Assembly (NCBI RefSeq): GCF_900110085.1
Contig: NZ_FOCK01000002.1
Span: 186,001 to 250,000 of the forward strand
Direction of reading: 5' to 3'
Length of the DNA: 64,000 nucleotides
Source of the DNA: Prevotella sp. ne3005
GTDB taxonomy: Bacteria; Bacteroidota; Bacteroidia; Bacteroidales; Bacteroidaceae
Positions within the stretch are counted from its first letter, which is position 1, and each line of letters begins with the position of its first letter. This document shows positions 1-28,512 of the stretch, one piece after another. The translations under genes and the position numbers were made by a program. The notes below the pieces were generated by a model that saw only the letters and a program-made list of their open reading frames with translations, was not told the origin of the DNA and searched no databases.

Positions 1-2
1 TC

Positions 3-545
3 AGTGGTTCTTGTGGCCAACCCGTCGACCGTATGGAAGTGAAGATTCTGAGTCGCGACCCTCAGAACATTGCTGGTGAGATTGTAACCAAGGGGACAAA
101 TATGATGACGGGGTATTACCTGAACGAGGAGGCTACCCGCGAGGCTATTGACGAGGAAGGCTGGTATCACACCGGCGACCTTGGCACGATGTCGGAGGAT
201 GGACATATCTTCATCCGTGGACGCCTGAAGAATATGTTATTGGGAGCCAACGGTCAGAACGTGTATCCAGAGGAAATTGAGGACAAGCTTAACACGATGG
301 CAATGGTATCGGAAAGCATCGTGGTACAGAAGGACGACAAGCTCGTGGCACTCGTTTATCCCGACAAGGACGAGGTTGTAAGCTTCAGTCAACAAGAGTT
401 GGAGAACATCATGGAACAGAACCGCAAAGAACTGAACGAGCAATTGCCTGTCTACAGTCGCATCTCGGCGATTATCCTCCACAAAGAGGAGTTTGCCAAG
501 ACGCCTAAAAAAAGTATCAAACGCTACTTATATCAGAATATCTAA
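3..545 (+). CDS. Long-chain acyl-CoA synthetase, C-terminal part (5' end outside window)
   Basis: Partial gene entering from the left edge; the reading frame is open from base 3. It encodes the C-terminal part of an AMP-forming acyl-CoA/acyl-acid ligase (ANL superfamily). Visible are GWYHTGDLG, whose Asp normally contacts the AMP ribose, the hinge segment with GRLKNMLL, and the terminal KTPKKSIKRYLY with the conserved catalytic Lys region. The family activates fatty acids with ATP and transfers them to CoA or a carrier. It is closely similar to the complete gene that starts 6 bases downstream, so the two are tandem paralogues, probably co-transcribed. Substrate unknown. Confidence 0.9.
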   Translation, partial: SGSCGQPVDRMEVKILSRDPQNIAGEIVTKGTNMMTGYYLNEEATREAIDEEGWYHTGDLGTMSEDGHIFIRGRLKNMLLGANGQNVYPEEIEDKLNTMAMVSESIVVQKDDKLVALVYPDKDEVVSFSQQELENIMEQNRKELNEQLPVYSRISAIILHKEEFAKTPKKSIKRYLYQNI

Positions 546-21014: not shown

Positions 21015-22547
21015 TCAGTCGCTTATATCTTGAATTGTATATCTGGTTTCTGCCCAGCTACTTTTATAGAACCTTACTTTCTTTGTATAGTATTGCATAT
21101 TTGATTTGTTTATATAAATAATTTTAAGATAGAAAGTGTTATCCAAGAAATAATTCTCCAAATAATCTGTATGATCTTGAATCTTTACAACTTCGTAATC
21201 TACAGAACTTCCACTAGGTAAATTGATACTTTCACTTTTATTATGGAAACTATTTCCAGAACTCGAGTATGCATTCATATTCTTTATTTCTATATTACAT
21301 TTAGAATTATTCGTAATAGAAAAATCAATATAAGATGCAAAACGATCTCCATATACAACACCTGTTCCTATTTCGTATAAAGTTATTTCTTTTGAGATAT
21401 TATTCATATCAACTTCTTTTCTTAGCTCTACTTTTACTGATATTTCATCACTATGGGAACCATCTTTTGTCATAACGGATATCCTTGCACTTCCTTCGCT
21501 TATACCAGTTAGTTTTCCTTTACTATCAACTGTTGCTACAGTTGGGTTCCATGACATCCATGTTACATCCTTTCCTGTTTCATTCACTAATTTTAGATTT
21601 TTCTTCTCACCTACTCCTAAAGTTACATTTTTGTCATCAATATAGAAACGTACTGTTTGTTTCAAGACGACCTTCTTTGATAAGCCCCATTTCGTATTGC
21701 TACATCTAAATGTGATGGTTGTAGATCTACTGCTCGAAATTGGTTCTACATAGAAATTCTGTACAAAGCTGAATCCTTTTTCATCAGTTCTGTCTTGAAT
21801 ATATACCCAGGAATCATCTCGAACAATATCGATATCAGTATTGGTCGAAACTGCAATACTAAATTTACCTCCATTCACATCAAGTAAAATTTCGTCTTTA
21901 TCTATCTCAAGATATGGTGTGAATCCTTGCGATATTGTCACTTGAGTTTTAACACCTGTATCTTTATAAACAAAAGTAACTTTAGCTTCTCTCTCATCTC
22001 CACTTTCATTCTTCGACGCTCTTAGGACTACAGATGAACTAGTTAAGGATCTAGTACTTACCTTTTTAAGCCAATCTGCATCAGATGGTATCTCAACTTC
22101 ATAAGCAACATTGCTCTGAACGTCAATTTTAACTTCGCCTCCATCTTCTGGGATTGTATAGGACTTATTATCTATCAGAATCGCATCATTCTGTTTTTGA
22201 ACCACACTAAATGAAAGAGTTGTTGCATCTTCAGGATCGGTTAATGTAATCGTAGCCTGTCTTTCTTCATAGGTCTCATTTGGTTGTACATTAATAACAA
22301 CTGATGATCCTTGAATGGATGCACTACACCATACAGCGCTACTAGTTATGGTACACTTACTTATATCTTTAGTACCAATACTGACTGTCTTATTATTCGT
22401 ACCAGTCTCAAATGTTTGTTTATCAATAACAATACCCTTTAATGGGCTGGAATAATCTTCTCCACAAGAAACGGTACATGTTATACTTATCACCACAAGG
22501 AATAGTGATAATAGGGAATAGTTTATTGTTTTTATGTTCCTTATCAT
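21015..22547 (-). CDS. BACON and Ig-like (BIG2) domain lipoprotein
   Basis: 510 residues. Lipoprotein signal with Cys near residue 28 (TCTVSCGED). Three BACON-like domains (about 35-115, 118-205, 208-300; FSVVQKQND, VTISQGF, VVLKQTV mark their last strands) are followed by a bacterial Ig-like type 2 domain (about 302-378: VTLGVGEKKNLKL, PTVATVDSKGKLTGISEGSA) and a C-terminal beta-rich domain (about 385-510). It is a paralogue of the downstream gene. The ATG lies about 33 bases after a strongly folded RNA region with a terminator-like end, and no separate promoter is visible, so its transcript may pass through that RNA. Confidence 0.87.
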   Translation of the reverse strand: MIRNIKTINYSLLSLFLVVISITCTVSCGEDYSSPLKGIVIDKQTFETGTNNKTVSIGTKDISKCTITSSAVWCSASIQGSSVVINVQPNETYEERQATITLTDPEDATTLSFSVVQKQNDAILIDNKSYTIPEDGGEVKIDVQSNVAYEVEIPSDADWLKKVSTRSLTSSSVVLRASKNESGDEREAKVTFVYKDTGVKTQVTISQGFTPYLEIDKDEILLDVNGGKFSIAVSTNTDIDIVRDDSWVYIQDRTDEKGFSFVQNFYVEPISSSRSTTITFRCSNTKWGLSKKVVLKQTVRFYIDDKNVTLGVGEKKNLKLVNETGKDVTWMSWNPTVATVDSKGKLTGISEGSARISVMTKDGSHSDEISVKVELRKEVDMNNISKEITLYEIGTGVVYGDRFASYIDFSITNNSKCNIEIKNMNAYSSSGNSFHNKSESINLPSGSSVDYEVVKIQDHTDYLENYFLDNTFYLKIIYINKSNMQYYTKKVRFYKSSWAETRYTIQDISD

Positions 22548-22579: not shown

Positions 22580-22830
22580 CCAAAAGAAAACGTGGACAAT
22601 TTACTTCGTCTACGTTCCTGAGGTATCGCCAAACACCTAATGTACTTAAACTGGTAAATGCCCACGCCATGCGGCGCGAACTATCTACTTCAGTTCTTGT
22701 ACATTTCCTTGAAATTTTGGCGATTTTCAGGAACAAGAATCAAAAGTGGATGTTCATCCTATATGTCCTTTTTAAAAGTTATCTCAGCCCATAGGCAATT
22801 CCGTTTTGAGGGTTATACATTATTGTAATA
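22580..22830 (-). ncRNA. Highly structured RNA (small RNA or leader) upstream of the BACON genes
   Basis: Read on the minus strand, complementary segments nest in order: 22727-22734 with 22614-22621 (GTTCCTGA), 22716-22724 with 22625-22633 (ATCGCCAAA), 22699-22705 with 22639-22645 (AATGTAC), 22691-22695 with 22649-22653, and a tip hairpin 22663-22678 (CGCGCC-GCAT-GGCGTG). A further hairpin (22590-22597 with 22608-22615, one mismatch) is followed by TTTTCTTTT, like a terminator. A promoter lies just upstream. Together this is a long interrupted hairpin of about 120 bases in a roughly 250-base transcript. Candidates: a 6S-like or Bacteroidales-specific small RNA, or a regulatory leader of the BACON operon. 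I cannot name the family. Confidence 0.75.
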
Positions 22831-22835
22831 GAATG

Positions 22836-22867
22836 CAAATATACAAACTTATTCTGAAACTTCCAAA
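22836..22867 (-). promoter_or_regulatory. Promoter of the structured RNA
   Basis: Minus strand -7 TATATTTG (22836-22843) and -33 TTTG (22864-22867) with a 20-bp spacer; transcription should start near 22830. Confidence 0.75.
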
Positions 22868-25984: not shown

Positions 25985-26287
25985 TTAATCAAACTCGAAG
26001 AGGGTGATAAAGCCCGTCAGCTTGAACACGTTCTTGATGTCGTCGTTCACGCCGTGCATAATCACCTTACTGCCAGTAGCCTTAGCGCCTTTCAGGATGA
26101 CCAGCAGGATGCGCAGGCCACTGGAAGCGATATATTCCAGGTCAGTGCAGTCGATAATGACATCTTTGCCGTCGGAGTGATAAAGCGGTTTCAGCACCTC
26201 TTCAGCCTCCGTAGCTGCCATCGTATCCATTTCTCCTTCCAATGTGGCGACATACTTGCCGTCGATTTCTTCCAATTTCGTATTCAT
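25985..26287 (-). CDS. STAS-domain anti-sigma factor antagonist
   Basis: 100 residues, a single STAS domain of the SpoIIAA/RsbV type. The phosphorylation loop is in CTDLEYIASSGLRILL, where the first or second Ser would be the site for a kinase and for a PP2C phosphatase. It is encoded 26 bases downstream of the SpoIIE-type phosphatase/kinase protein and so is its likely substrate. The final target (a sigma factor or another partner) is not seen in this window. Confidence 0.9.
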   Translation of the reverse strand: MNTKLEEIDGKYVATLEGEMDTMAATEAEEVLKPLYHSDGKDVIIDCTDLEYIASSGLRILLVILKGAKATGSKVIMHGVNDDIKNVFKLTGFITLFEFD

Positions 26288-26313
26288 AATCTTTCTATTT
26301 TGTAAATTAACTT

Positions 26314-28512
26314 TTATCCTTTTAACTTCTTAATCAGCGTCAATACGTTCTGCCCGTCTATACGCTCATAGTTGATGGTGTCCATCAGCTCGCGAACCAG
26401 CAGGATGCCCAGTCCACCTATCTGACGGTCTTCGGCAGAGAGCGATGTATCGGCCTTCTCTTTCGCAGTGGGGTCGAAAGCCACGCCAGAGTCGGTGATG
26501 ACCGTCTTCATAGTCTCACCATCGGACATGACGCGCACCTCGACTTCACCCGTCTGTCCTGCAGGATAGGCATAGTCGATGACATTCACCACAGCCTCCT
26601 CTATGGCCAGACGGAGCCTACGGGCTAGCGATTTCTCTACATTCATTTTCTCCAGCACCGACTTGATGAATATGCTGAACTTCGCCACTTCGTGTACATC
26701 GTTCTTGAGCACGAGCGTCTCTGTCAGCGTACTCTCGTAGCGCTTCGGCGTATAGTGGATCACCAGCATCGTCAGGTCATCGCTCTGCTGGGCTTCGCCA
26801 ACAAACGCATGCACGCTGGCGGTTACGGCTTCGAGCAATTGCTGGGGCTGAAGCTGGCTGTTGGCCGCAAGCGTCTTTTGTATGCGCTCAAGACCATACA
26901 GCTTGTGCTTGATGTCCTTCGCCTCTGTCAGTCCGTCAGTATAAAGGAACAAAGTGGAGTCAGGCTCCAGCTGCGTTTCCTGAACACCATACTTCACGTC
27001 GTCGAACAATCCGACAGGGATGTGGGGCAAGGCATCGACATTCGACAATTTCCCATCCTTCAGGATGATTGGCGCATCGTGGCCAGCATCGCAATAGCGC
27101 AGACGACCTGTTGGCAGGTCGAGCACACCGATAAAGAAGGTGACGAAAATGCAGGCGTCGTTGCCCTCGCAGGAGACCTCATTGACGGATTGCATGATAT
27201 GGGCGGGATTGTTCTCATGAGCCGAGAAGGCACGGAACAACGAATGGATCACGCTCATCACCATCGCCGCTGGTGCTCCCTTGCCACTGACATCGCCAAT
27301 GCAGAAGAACAGCTTCTCATCTCGGATGTAAAAATCATACAGGTCACCACCCACCTCACGGGCAGGCACCAGCGAACCATAGATATTCACATCGTCGTGC
27401 TGCAGATGGCTGGGTGGCAGCATGCTCTGTTGTATCTGGCTGGCCACGTGCAACTCGCTGCCAATACGTTCCTTTTCGGCATTTGCCTTGCGTAAACGTT
27501 CTAAGTTACGTGAGCTACGCCACACAATAAATCCCATCAGTATCAGACCAGCCAGAACGGGCAGCAGGAGGGTTCTGCGTATGATGCTCAGTTTACTGAA
27601 CACCTCGTTGTCGTTCAGGATATTAATCAGAATCCAGTTTGTATGGCCACCCACAGGGTGGTAAAACATGTGATACTTCTCACCTTGCTCATCTTCGATG
27701 GCTACATAACCCGTACTGTCCACATCGGCCCTAACCTGTTGGAGTGCTTTATGGAACATAGCGTTATCCTTGCCTGCCAACAAATGCCCCTTGCCAGTCA
27801 CGACAAAACGCTGAGTGGCCTTATAGAGCTTCCCTTCTTCCACCACTTCCTCAAGCCAGTCAAGCGCTATATCCGCATCCACCACAGCCACAATCTTACC
27901 TTTATTGTCACGGACAGGCACACCATAGGTGGTCACCATCTCCCTGGCGCCCTTATTGTCAAAATAAGGCTCGCACCAATGACCGCCGTTTTTGGCTATC
28001 GGGGCGGTAAAGAATTCCATCTGCGTATAGTCATGCTCTTCCGAACTCAACTGCATGGTCTCAATGCTCCCGTCAGCCCTTCTGACGGAATAGGGCTCAT
28101 ACAAGCGGCCTATCTTCGGAAAGTAGTTAGGAATGAAGGTGACCGTAGCGCCCAGAACGGCAGGGTTGTTCTCCACCAGTCGGTGTGTAATCGAGAACAT
28201 CCACTCAGGCTCATCCAGTCCATCGCTTACCACCCACGACATATTGTCAACAGTCACTTCCACCTTAGCCAGTTGGTTACGGATACAGAGAAAGAGGGCA
28301 TTCATCTCGCGCTCTACCAATCTGTCTACCGTATTGTGGATAATATTCTGCGCTGAGTAGTACAAGACAGCCGATGTCAGCTCCAACAAAAGAGCTGCAC
28401 CAATAATAAGGGACAAGGGTATATTGTGCCTTATGACCTCACTTATCCGATTCCAAACAGACTTTTTCTTCACAAGAATCTTTTGTATTGTTTTAAGCAA
28501 CACAAGGCGCAT
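26314..28512 (-). CDS. Membrane sensor with Cache, SpoIIE (PP2C) phosphatase and HATPase domains
   Basis: 732 residues. One transmembrane helix (about 32-55), a periplasmic Cache-like sensor (about 60-300, with YGVPVRDNKGKIVAVVDADI), a second helix (about 310-330, LLLPVLAGLILMGFIVW), a SpoIIE-type PP2C domain (about 375-575, metal Asp motifs GDLYDF, FCIGDVSGKGAPA, DDLTMLV) and a C-terminal RsbW-like HATPase (about 600-732: EEAVVNVIDYAYP, DSGVAFDP, GGLGILLVREL). It therefore carries both opposing activities of a partner switch. Two STAS proteins are encoded nearby. The ligand sensed is unknown. Confidence 0.92.
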   Translation of the reverse strand: MRLVLLKTIQKILVKKKSVWNRISEVIRHNIPLSLIIGAALLLELTSAVLYYSAQNIIHNTVDRLVEREMNALFLCIRNQLAKVEVTVDNMSWVVSDGLDEPEWMFSITHRLVENNPAVLGATVTFIPNYFPKIGRLYEPYSVRRADGSIETMQLSSEEHDYTQMEFFTAPIAKNGGHWCEPYFDNKGAREMVTTYGVPVRDNKGKIVAVVDADIALDWLEEVVEEGKLYKATQRFVVTGKGHLLAGKDNAMFHKALQQVRADVDSTGYVAIEDEQGEKYHMFYHPVGGHTNWILINILNDNEVFSKLSIIRRTLLLPVLAGLILMGFIVWRSSRNLERLRKANAEKERIGSELHVASQIQQSMLPPSHLQHDDVNIYGSLVPAREVGGDLYDFYIRDEKLFFCIGDVSGKGAPAAMVMSVIHSLFRAFSAHENNPAHIMQSVNEVSCEGNDACIFVTFFIGVLDLPTGRLRYCDAGHDAPIILKDGKLSNVDALPHIPVGLFDDVKYGVQETQLEPDSTLFLYTDGLTEAKDIKHKLYGLERIQKTLAANSQLQPQQLLEAVTASVHAFVGEAQQSDDLTMLVIHYTPKRYESTLTETLVLKNDVHEVAKFSIFIKSVLEKMNVEKSLARRLRLAIEEAVVNVIDYAYPAGQTGEVEVRVMSDGETMKTVITDSGVAFDPTAKEKADTSLSAEDRQIGGLGILLVRELMDTINYERIDGQNVLTLIKKLKG

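What the first reader, a model, noticed from the sequence alone, without database searches (positions are those of the whole stretch)
22580..22867. Long folded RNA with its own promoter and terminator-like end
On the minus strand five complementary segment pairs nest perfectly into one interrupted hairpin of about 120 bases, after a consensus promoter and before a second hairpin with a U run. It ends 33 bases before the BACON lipoprotein gene. Either it is a stand-alone small RNA (shape and promoter recall 6S RNA or the Bacteroidales-1 class) or an attenuator leader that sets expression of the surface lipoproteins.
Basis: partly seen in the sequence, partly recalled or inferred. Interest (0 to 1): 0.8.

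Follow-up and report, generated by a model that had tools for sequence, protein, structure and literature searches.

The report
Attenuator leader RNA of surface-protein genes
Upstream of a surface-lipoprotein gene in a Prevotella-type bacterium sits an RNA switch that is absent from the Rfam library, has relatives in many sampled Bacteroidetes genomes, looks built to decide whether transcription stops early or runs on into the gene, and in Prevotella-type copies begins with an open reading frame only one to three codons long.

Summary
The minus-strand RNA (window ~22831-22582) folds far better than shuffles, and its nested helices show many compensatory changes in relatives. It is not 6S/Bacteroidales-1: no Rfam family reaches its cut-off, the genome has a separate Bacteroidales-1 gene, and the RNA is multi-copy. 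Relatives were found in 79 of 120 sampled genomes of the genus, 107 of 295 of the order, 32 of 296 of the phylum (own genome included in each). The best reading is a transcription-attenuator leader. Four strands form three successive, mutually exclusive hairpins (1:2, 2:3, 3:4); 3:4 ends in a U run, 34 nt before the lipoprotein start. About half of the copies have a -7 promoter motif upstream, few have one between U run and gene, and most precede co-directional genes that begin like secreted proteins. In Prevotella-type copies a minimal ORF (ATG, 0-2 codons, stop) precedes the switch in 110 of 118 copies. Energy favours the antiterminated form, so what permits termination, and the signal, are unknown. 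No transcript data were available.

The parts
22836..22867 (-). promoter: TTTG (22864-22867), 20 nt, TATATTTG (22836-22843); start of RNA expected near 22831 (inferred)
   Evidence: sequence; consensus TTTG/TAnnTTTG as quoted in PMC7366714 (passages); TAnnTTTG within 120 nt upstream of the core in 17 of 40, 35 of 78, 20 of 31 and 23 of 29 copies (no shuffle control run)
22784..22792 (-). minimal ORF ATG GGC TGA
   Evidence: sequence; ATG plus 0-2 codons plus stop in 38 of 40 and 72 of 78 Prevotella-type copies
22733..22756 (-). strand 1 of the attenuator (pairs with strand 2)
   Evidence: fold of 22673-22763, -21.5 kcal/mol, z -2.8, 2 of 200 shuffles as good; 1:2 partner-swap z 6.4, 7.9, 4.4, 6.3 in A1, A8, A2, A3
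22727..22734 (-). H1 5' segment (GUUCCUGA), pairs with 22614-22621
22716..22724 (-). H2 5' segment (AUCGCCAAA), pairs with 22625-22633
22699..22705 (-). H3 5' segment, pairs with 22639-22645
22673..22699 (-). strand 2 (pairs with strand 1 or with strand 3)
22648..22668 (-). strand 3 (pairs with strand 2 = antiterminator, or with strand 4 = terminator)
   Evidence: 2:3 fold -24.5 kcal/mol, z -5.7; 3:4 fold -29 kcal/mol, z -4.5; 0 of 200 shuffles as good for either
22639..22645 (-). H3 3' segment
22622..22637 (-). small hairpin GGUG..UACC that carries the H2 3' segment (22625-22633)
   Evidence: alignment; swap z 4.5 in A1
22614..22621 (-). H1 3' segment (UCAGGAAC)
   Evidence: 3:4 partner-swap z 5.7, 2.2, 6.1, 9.0 in A1, A8, A2, A3
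22582..22590 (-). U run (UUUUCUUUU)
   Evidence: sequence; six or more T in the last 9 nt in 40 of 40, 77 of 78, 29 of 31, 25 of 29 copies (the model used to find copies itself favours T there)
21015..22547 (-). gene behind the leader: BACON / Big_2 protein with lipoprotein-like start, 510 aa
   Evidence: Pfam BACON 6.9e-17, Big_2 4.2e-10

Best explanation
A transcription-attenuator leader RNA. Transcription starts at the -33/-7 promoter, passes a minimal ORF and then makes four strands. Strand 1 can pair with 2, 2 with 3, and 3 with 4; strand 4 is followed by a U run. If 1:2 holds, 3 is free to pair with 4 and RNA polymerase should stop 34 nt short of the lipoprotein start. If 2:3 forms, backed by helices H1-H3 between the loop of 1:2 and the loop of 3:4, no terminator can form and the gene is transcribed. 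Shown by sequence: the three exclusive pairings, their covariation, the U run, the promoter motif and gene placement. Inferred: actual termination, which state is the default, and the signal. The same leader sits before many, mostly secreted-type, proteins, so it probably sets a shared control of surface genes.
For: Covariation by swapping partners between copies, sets A1/A8/A2/A3 (n 42/77/31/29): 1:2 z 6.4/7.9/4.4/6.3; 3:4 z 5.7/2.2/6.1/9.0; 2:3 z 1.0/1.2/6.0/7.6, with its core B5:B3 2.6/3.5/7.9/7.1; control pairings 1:3 and 2:4 between -2.7 and 1.8. Divergent copies L101, L113, L115 keep 11-bp 3:4 stems with other letters. H1, H2, H3 z 9 to 22 in all four sets. Isolated hairpins average -18.5 to -22.2 (1..2), -20.0 to -21.0 (2..3) and -29.5 to -32.0 kcal/mol (3..4) by set (window values). 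U run in nearly all copies. Next ORF co-directional in 36 of 40, 66 of 73, 26 of 30, 25 of 28 copies (5, 1 and 1 copies of the last three sets dropped for lack of 3' sequence); start 25-75 nt after the U run in 30 of 36, 51 of 66, 16 of 26, 5 of 25; TAnnTTTG in the 60 nt after the U run in only 2 of 40, 2 of 78, 1 of 31, 0 of 29. Signal-peptide-like start by a home-made rule in 28 of 36, 57 of 66, 19 of 26, 14 of 25 next ORFs against 10 of 57, 104 of 279, 9 of 26, 7 of 28 other ORFs of 100 aa or more in the same loci.
Against: No transcript or termination data. The minimum-energy fold of the finished leader is the 2:3 form; forcing the core of 3:4 costs on average 10.7, 10.4, 15.0 and 7.7 kcal/mol, and by minimum energy 2:3 pairing (5 or more pairs) is present as soon as strand 3 is made, in 40 of 40, 76 of 76, 31 of 31 and 29 of 29 copies, with 5 or more 1:2 pairs left in 16, 25, 22 and 15 of them; so a terminated state needs slow refolding or a factor. 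In A8 the short 3:4 core does not covary (z -0.8) and the longer 3:4 is reached by some swaps (z 2.2); 2:3 as a whole is also reached by swaps in A1 and A8. A8 was gathered with an exact pattern that fixes part of strands 2 and 3, which hides variation there. In non-Bacteroidales copies the next gene often starts further away (median gap 159 nt). Some next genes are not secreted (EcoRI-type methylase; others by eye).
Confidence: 0.78

Rival explanations
1. A stand-alone small RNA (6S-like or of unknown role) with its own promoter and terminator, whose place before a gene is secondary.
For: Own promoter motif and U run; complex fold. In non-Bacteroidales copies the promoter motif peaks 10-20 nt before the core and the next gene is often further away (median 159 nt).
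Against: No match at Rfam cut-offs; separate Bacteroidales-1 gene in the genome; up to 8 matches per genome with only 8 to 22 candidates scored; co-directional neighbour at short distance and few -7 motifs in the gap; leader plus gene apparently duplicated as a unit in L116 (by eye).
Confidence: 0.08
2. A leader that works on translation or mRNA stability rather than on termination: the structure or the ribosome on the minimal ORF protects the 5' end or hides the start region, and the U run is incidental.
For: Minigenes in leaders are known to act on translation and stability (PMC8708949, passages seen). A GGACU-type segment past the U run can pair with strand 4 in part of the copies (swap z 2.5 in A8, where some swaps score higher, 4.9 in A2, 2.9 in A3), so structure may continue past the U run. 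Energy favours the non-terminated form.
Against: Covarying 3:4 stem directly before a U run in nearly all copies. The window copy lacks the GGACU segment (sequence).
Confidence: 0.1
3. A mobile DNA element or recombination site (integron attC-like or other repeat) that scatters accessory genes, with folding of DNA rather than RNA.
For: Multi-copy, often behind a toxin-antitoxin-type gene and before an accessory gene, sometimes near contig ends, one tandem pair.
Against: Promoter motif at a preferred distance upstream, in-frame minimal ORF, U run, strand-specific layout. Window copy not found by BLAST in plasmids or phages; one exact pattern not found in viral contigs.
Confidence: 0.04

Closest known systems
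Leader-peptide transcription attenuators (trp type, 1:2 / 2:3 / 3:4)
   Same: Four strands, exclusive hairpins, terminator with U run, short ORF upstream (layout recalled; a three-hairpin attenuator of ilvBNC seen only in the search listing, PMC11857589)
   Different: The ORF has only 1-3 codons, no fixed regulatory codon, and in the window ends 27 nt before strand 1; genes are mostly surface-type proteins; the two loops pair with each other through H1-H3; one family stands before many unrelated genes
Bacteroidales-1 RNA (RF01693; its likeness to 6S is recalled)
   Same: Long interrupted hairpin, own promoter, same order of bacteria (recalled)
   Different: No covariance match; a match to RF01693 sits elsewhere in this genome
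Leader minigenes of E. coli (two-codon minigenes in axe-txe and LEE1; six-codon in LEE4)
   Same: Start codon, one or few codons, stop, upstream of the main gene (PMC8708949, passages)
   Different: In the passages seen they are single cases not tied to a covarying attenuator or shared by a family of leaders
AUGUAA start-stop of Arabidopsis NIP5;1
   Same: Start codon followed at once by stop in a 5' leader, ribosome stalls there (PMC11915504, abstract and passages)
   Different: Plant mRNA, boron-dependent decay; no attenuator

Membership tests
Bacteroidales-1 RNA (RF01693) / 6S RNA | match to the family's covariance model | tested here: not met
   no match at gathering score in the window except two tRNAs; up to E 10 at the locus only four sub-threshold matches, SNORD18, PCGEM1, snR56 and DUF2815; the genome's Bacteroidales-1 match is at C10:312964-313147
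Bacteroidales-1 RNA (RF01693) / 6S RNA | usually one copy per genome (recalled) | tested here: not met
   5 matches to R1 in own genome at E 0.01, 3 strong and 2 weak
transcription attenuator | mutually exclusive antiterminator and terminator stems | tested here: met
   (sequence and folding level only)
transcription attenuator | terminator stem followed by U run, upstream of the gene and downstream of the promoter | tested here: met
transcription attenuator | regulated termination in vitro or in vivo | not testable with these tools
   no transcript data held
leader-peptide (ribosome-mediated) attenuator | short leader ORF | tested here: met
   110 of 118 Prevotella-type copies; only 16 of 30 and 3 of 30 in the other two sets
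leader-peptide (ribosome-mediated) attenuator | regulatory codons overlapping strand 1 so that a stalled ribosome masks it | tested here: not met
   46 different minimal ORFs, all three stops; in the window the stop ends at 22784 and strand 1 starts at 22756
riboswitch | conserved ligand-binding core unrelated to pairing | tested here: inconclusive
   H2 and loop letters vary together with their partners; no ligand can be tested
integron attC site | core sites and hairpin layout of attC | not tested
   compared with the layout from memory only
any Rfam 15 family | score above gathering cut-off | tested here: not met
   window and 20 of the relative loci: only tRNAs

The most novel reading that the evidence does not exclude
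A Bacteroidota-wide attenuator class in which, in the Prevotella-type branch, a ribosome that initiates on a start-stop ORF of 1-3 codons is the sensor: since neither the second codon nor the stop is fixed, it would read general translation state rather than an amino acid, and use it to switch many surface-protein genes together.
Probability: 0.3. Interest if true: 0.92.

Novelty: new variant of a known kind. Interest (0 to 1): 0.77.

Why it matters
If true, many surface and secreted proteins of Bacteroidota share one RNA switch that Rfam does not hold, which would explain part of how these bacteria turn surface proteins on and off without a dedicated regulator at each locus. The minimal ORF makes a clean, testable case of regulation by ribosome initiation and termination alone. 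The family can be modelled and used to predict regulons at once.

Tried and rejected
6S/Bacteroidales-1: rejected. Local pairing X:Y (5' GUUUC with a nearby GAAAC) as a general alternative: supported only in the two Prevotella-type sets (z 7.2, 5.0), not elsewhere (z -1.0, -0.6), so not used. Pairing P0 (UCUUG/CAAGA) is part of 1:2; it crosses H1-H3, so it is either a pseudoknot or the other state (z 2.4, 2.1, 5.2, 9.1). Pairing 1:4, present in many of the minimum-energy folds printed, does not covary (z 1.4, -4.5, 0.1, -0.1) and is taken as incidental. Integron attC: compared from memory only. A first count of the minimal ORF with a cruder choice of ATG gave 34 of 39 and 64 of 74; the rule was then changed, after seeing those misses, to the ATG best preceded by GCCT, a rule that does not use the stop. 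A forced-fold script failed to force the pairs; repeated properly. The script picked a wrong helix in two sets; repeated. The BLAST count of genomes (37 of 100) includes hits to the promoter stretch only and is not used as prevalence. Paper searches listed no earlier description of this RNA that I could recognise; only titles, abstract starts and the passages were seen, and only open-licence PMC papers are held.

Rows dropped and overlaps: one of 43 aligned copies (L021, insertion) left out of A1; three truncated matches (L151, L186, L208) left out of the 81, and a second copy in L184 out of the swap tests (77). L025/L059 and L029/L064 are the same genomic copies in two sets; L017 and L189 look like the same locus, so the sets overlap slightly. 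L056 and L057, weak copies of the window's own genome, were counted in the non-Prevotella sets. Protein scans took part of what I had: 37 of 39 next ORFs in the A1 set, 39 of 49 in the other sets, 31 of the 58 same-strand upstream ORFs, all from the A1 set, and 21 of the 39 opposite-strand upstream ORFs. Swap tests do not correct for relatedness between copies.

Full report
What is there. On the minus strand, a promoter motif of the Bacteroides type (TTTG, 20 nt, TATATTTG; consensus seen in passages of PMC7366714) is followed by a minimal ORF ATG GGC TGA (22784-22792), then a highly structured stretch (22768-22582) ending in a U run, and after 34 nt the start of a 510-aa BACON/Big_2 gene with a lipoprotein-like start. 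The core folds at -61 kcal/mol, z -7.5. No Rfam family reaches its cut-off there; at E up to 10 four chance-like matches appear, the best SNORD18 with E 0.16.

Relatives. BLAST in whole genomes found 3 copies in the own genome and many in the genus. 43 copies were aligned, 42 kept (A1). RNAalifold gives 37 pairs, 21 with double-sided changes. A covariance model R1 finds 5 matches in the own genome, 3 strong and 2 weak; matches in 79 of 120 genomes of the genus (E 1e-4); in 107 of 295 of the order, 75 of 184 genera (E 1e-3); and in 32 of 296 of the phylum sample, 16 of 140 genera, four of the genomes outside the class (E 1e-4). Each tally includes the own genome. Only 8 to 22 candidates per genome were scored in these three searches, so copy numbers are lower bounds. 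The window copy had no BLAST match in plasmids or phages, and the pattern none in viral contigs. A gathering-score Rfam scan of 20 relative loci found one tRNA only.

The nested form. On A1 95.3% of cells pair, with 207 double-change cells against a mean of 60 in shuffles, and sliding the partner destroys it. On A3 (29 copies, other classes; aligned to the model, which leans towards its structure) 94.7% pair, with 33 of 35 pairs changed on both sides at least once. Swapping partners between copies gives z of 9 to 22 for H1, H2 and H3 in all four sets.

The switch. Strand 4, just before the U run, is complementary to the 3' arm of the apical hairpin. 3:4 covaries (z 5.7, 2.2, 6.1, 9.0 in A1, A8, A2, A3). 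Its short core alone gives 4.9, -0.8, 5.2, 6.1, pooled 10.9 over 179 copies; A8, which shows least, was gathered with a pattern that fixes part of strands 2 and 3. In copies where strand 3 reads GGGGUGU-like instead of GGCGUGGGC, strand 4 has changed to match over 11 bp (L101, L113, L115). Strand 1 covaries with strand 2 (z 6.4, 7.9, 4.4, 6.3). 2:3 covaries outside Prevotella (z 6.0, 7.6) and hardly inside (1.0, 1.2), where it hardly varies; its core B5:B3 gives 2.6, 3.5, 7.9, 7.1. Control pairings 1:3 and 2:4 lie between -2.7 and 1.8, 1:4 between -4.5 and 1.4. These tests do not correct for relatedness. The three hairpins taken alone are of like strength: window -21.5, -24.5, -29 kcal/mol, z -2.8, -5.7, -4.5. 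By minimum energy of growing pieces 1:2 forms first and gives way, wholly or in part, to 2:3 when strand 3 is out; with all present the minimum-energy form is 2:3 plus H1-H3, and forcing the core of 3:4 costs 7.7 to 15 kcal/mol on average. This speaks for read-through at equilibrium; termination would need kinetic trapping of 1:2 or a factor. H1-H3 join the loop of 1:2 to the loop of 3:4, so they could exist as loop-loop pairing in one state and as a continuous hairpin in the other; this is inference.

Placement. TAnnTTTG occurs within 120 nt upstream of the core in 17 of 40, 35 of 78, 20 of 31 and 23 of 29 copies, and in the 60 nt after the U run in 2, 2, 1 and 0; no shuffle control was run for this. 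The next ORF is co-directional in 36 of 40, 66 of 73, 26 of 30 and 25 of 28; its start lies 25-75 nt after the U run in 30 of 36, 51 of 66, 16 of 26 and 5 of 25. By a simple rule of my own 28 of 36, 57 of 66, 19 of 26 and 14 of 25 of these ORFs begin like secreted proteins, more than other ORFs in the same loci (10 of 57, 104 of 279, 9 of 26, 7 of 28). Pfam in 37 of the 39 next proteins of the A1 set: LRR_5 (BspA type) in 13, BACON in 3; in 39 of 49 of the other sets: TonB plug in 9, Por_Secre_tail in 3, but also one EcoRI-type methylase. In one contig leader and gene look duplicated together (L116, by eye).

The minimal ORF. In Prevotella-type copies an ATG followed by 0, 1 or 2 codons and a stop precedes the core: 38 of 40 and 72 of 78 copies; 46 different ORFs over all sets; stops TAA, TAG and TGA. 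Other frames have a stop within four codons in 10 and 13 of 39, and 8 and 19 of 75; shuffles 0.32 and 0.29. After removing copies with similar 5' regions, 72 of 76 with an ATG (80 copies) have a stop within three codons, against 8 and 13 in the other frames and 71 of 648 ATGs further upstream. In other Bacteroidales it is seen in 16 of 30 and in other classes in 3 of 30, where the promoter motif peaks directly before the core. So the minimal ORF is not needed for the switch as such. Its stop is 27 nt from strand 1 in the window, so a ribosome sitting on it should not cover strand 1 (footprint size recalled); how it would act is open. The conserved ATG could in part be kept for pairing with a later CAUA (seen by eye, not tested), but that would not explain the in-frame stop.

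Verdict. A transcription-attenuator leader, new as a family with respect to Rfam 15, with a minimal ORF in one branch. Termination, default state and signal are inferred, not shown.

Noticed in passing
upstream of the leader in e.g. L004, L033, L034, L036, L039, L045, L050: In Prevotella-type copies the leader often follows at short distance a toxin-antitoxin-type gene in the same direction: among 31 upstream proteins scanned HepT-like 4, nucleotidyltransferase 4, PIN 2, HEPN 2, DUF2442 2, YoeB, RelE and Zeta 1 each (which locus has which is by eye). Why is unexplained.
   Followed up: partly
L087-L110 (other classes): A small divergent helix-turn-helix gene lies about 100 nt upstream of the leader in many copies (HTH_3 in 10 of 21 proteins scanned); downstream are TonB receptors or sigma factors in several.
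   Followed up: partly
G000:C10:159021-159209 (L056, L127): A weak copy in the own genome precedes an EcoRI-type methylase gene (order of genes); its 3:4 stem uses other letters, GCATGGACG/CGTCCATGT.
   Followed up: partly
past the U run in part of L058-L086 and L145-L215: A GGACU-type segment complementary to strand 4, mostly about 17-27 nt past the U run, lies before the next gene in part of the copies but not in the window copy.
   Followed up: partly
G000:C10:74509-74690 (L042, L125): The second strong copy in the own genome precedes a gene like the window lipoprotein (both read ...CGEDYSSPLKG..., by eye), 134 kb away.
   Followed up: no
window 25985-28512: SpoIIE phosphatase with sensor and HATPase domains (26314-28512) next to a STAS-domain gene (25985-26287): looks like a partner-switching pair.
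   Followed up: no
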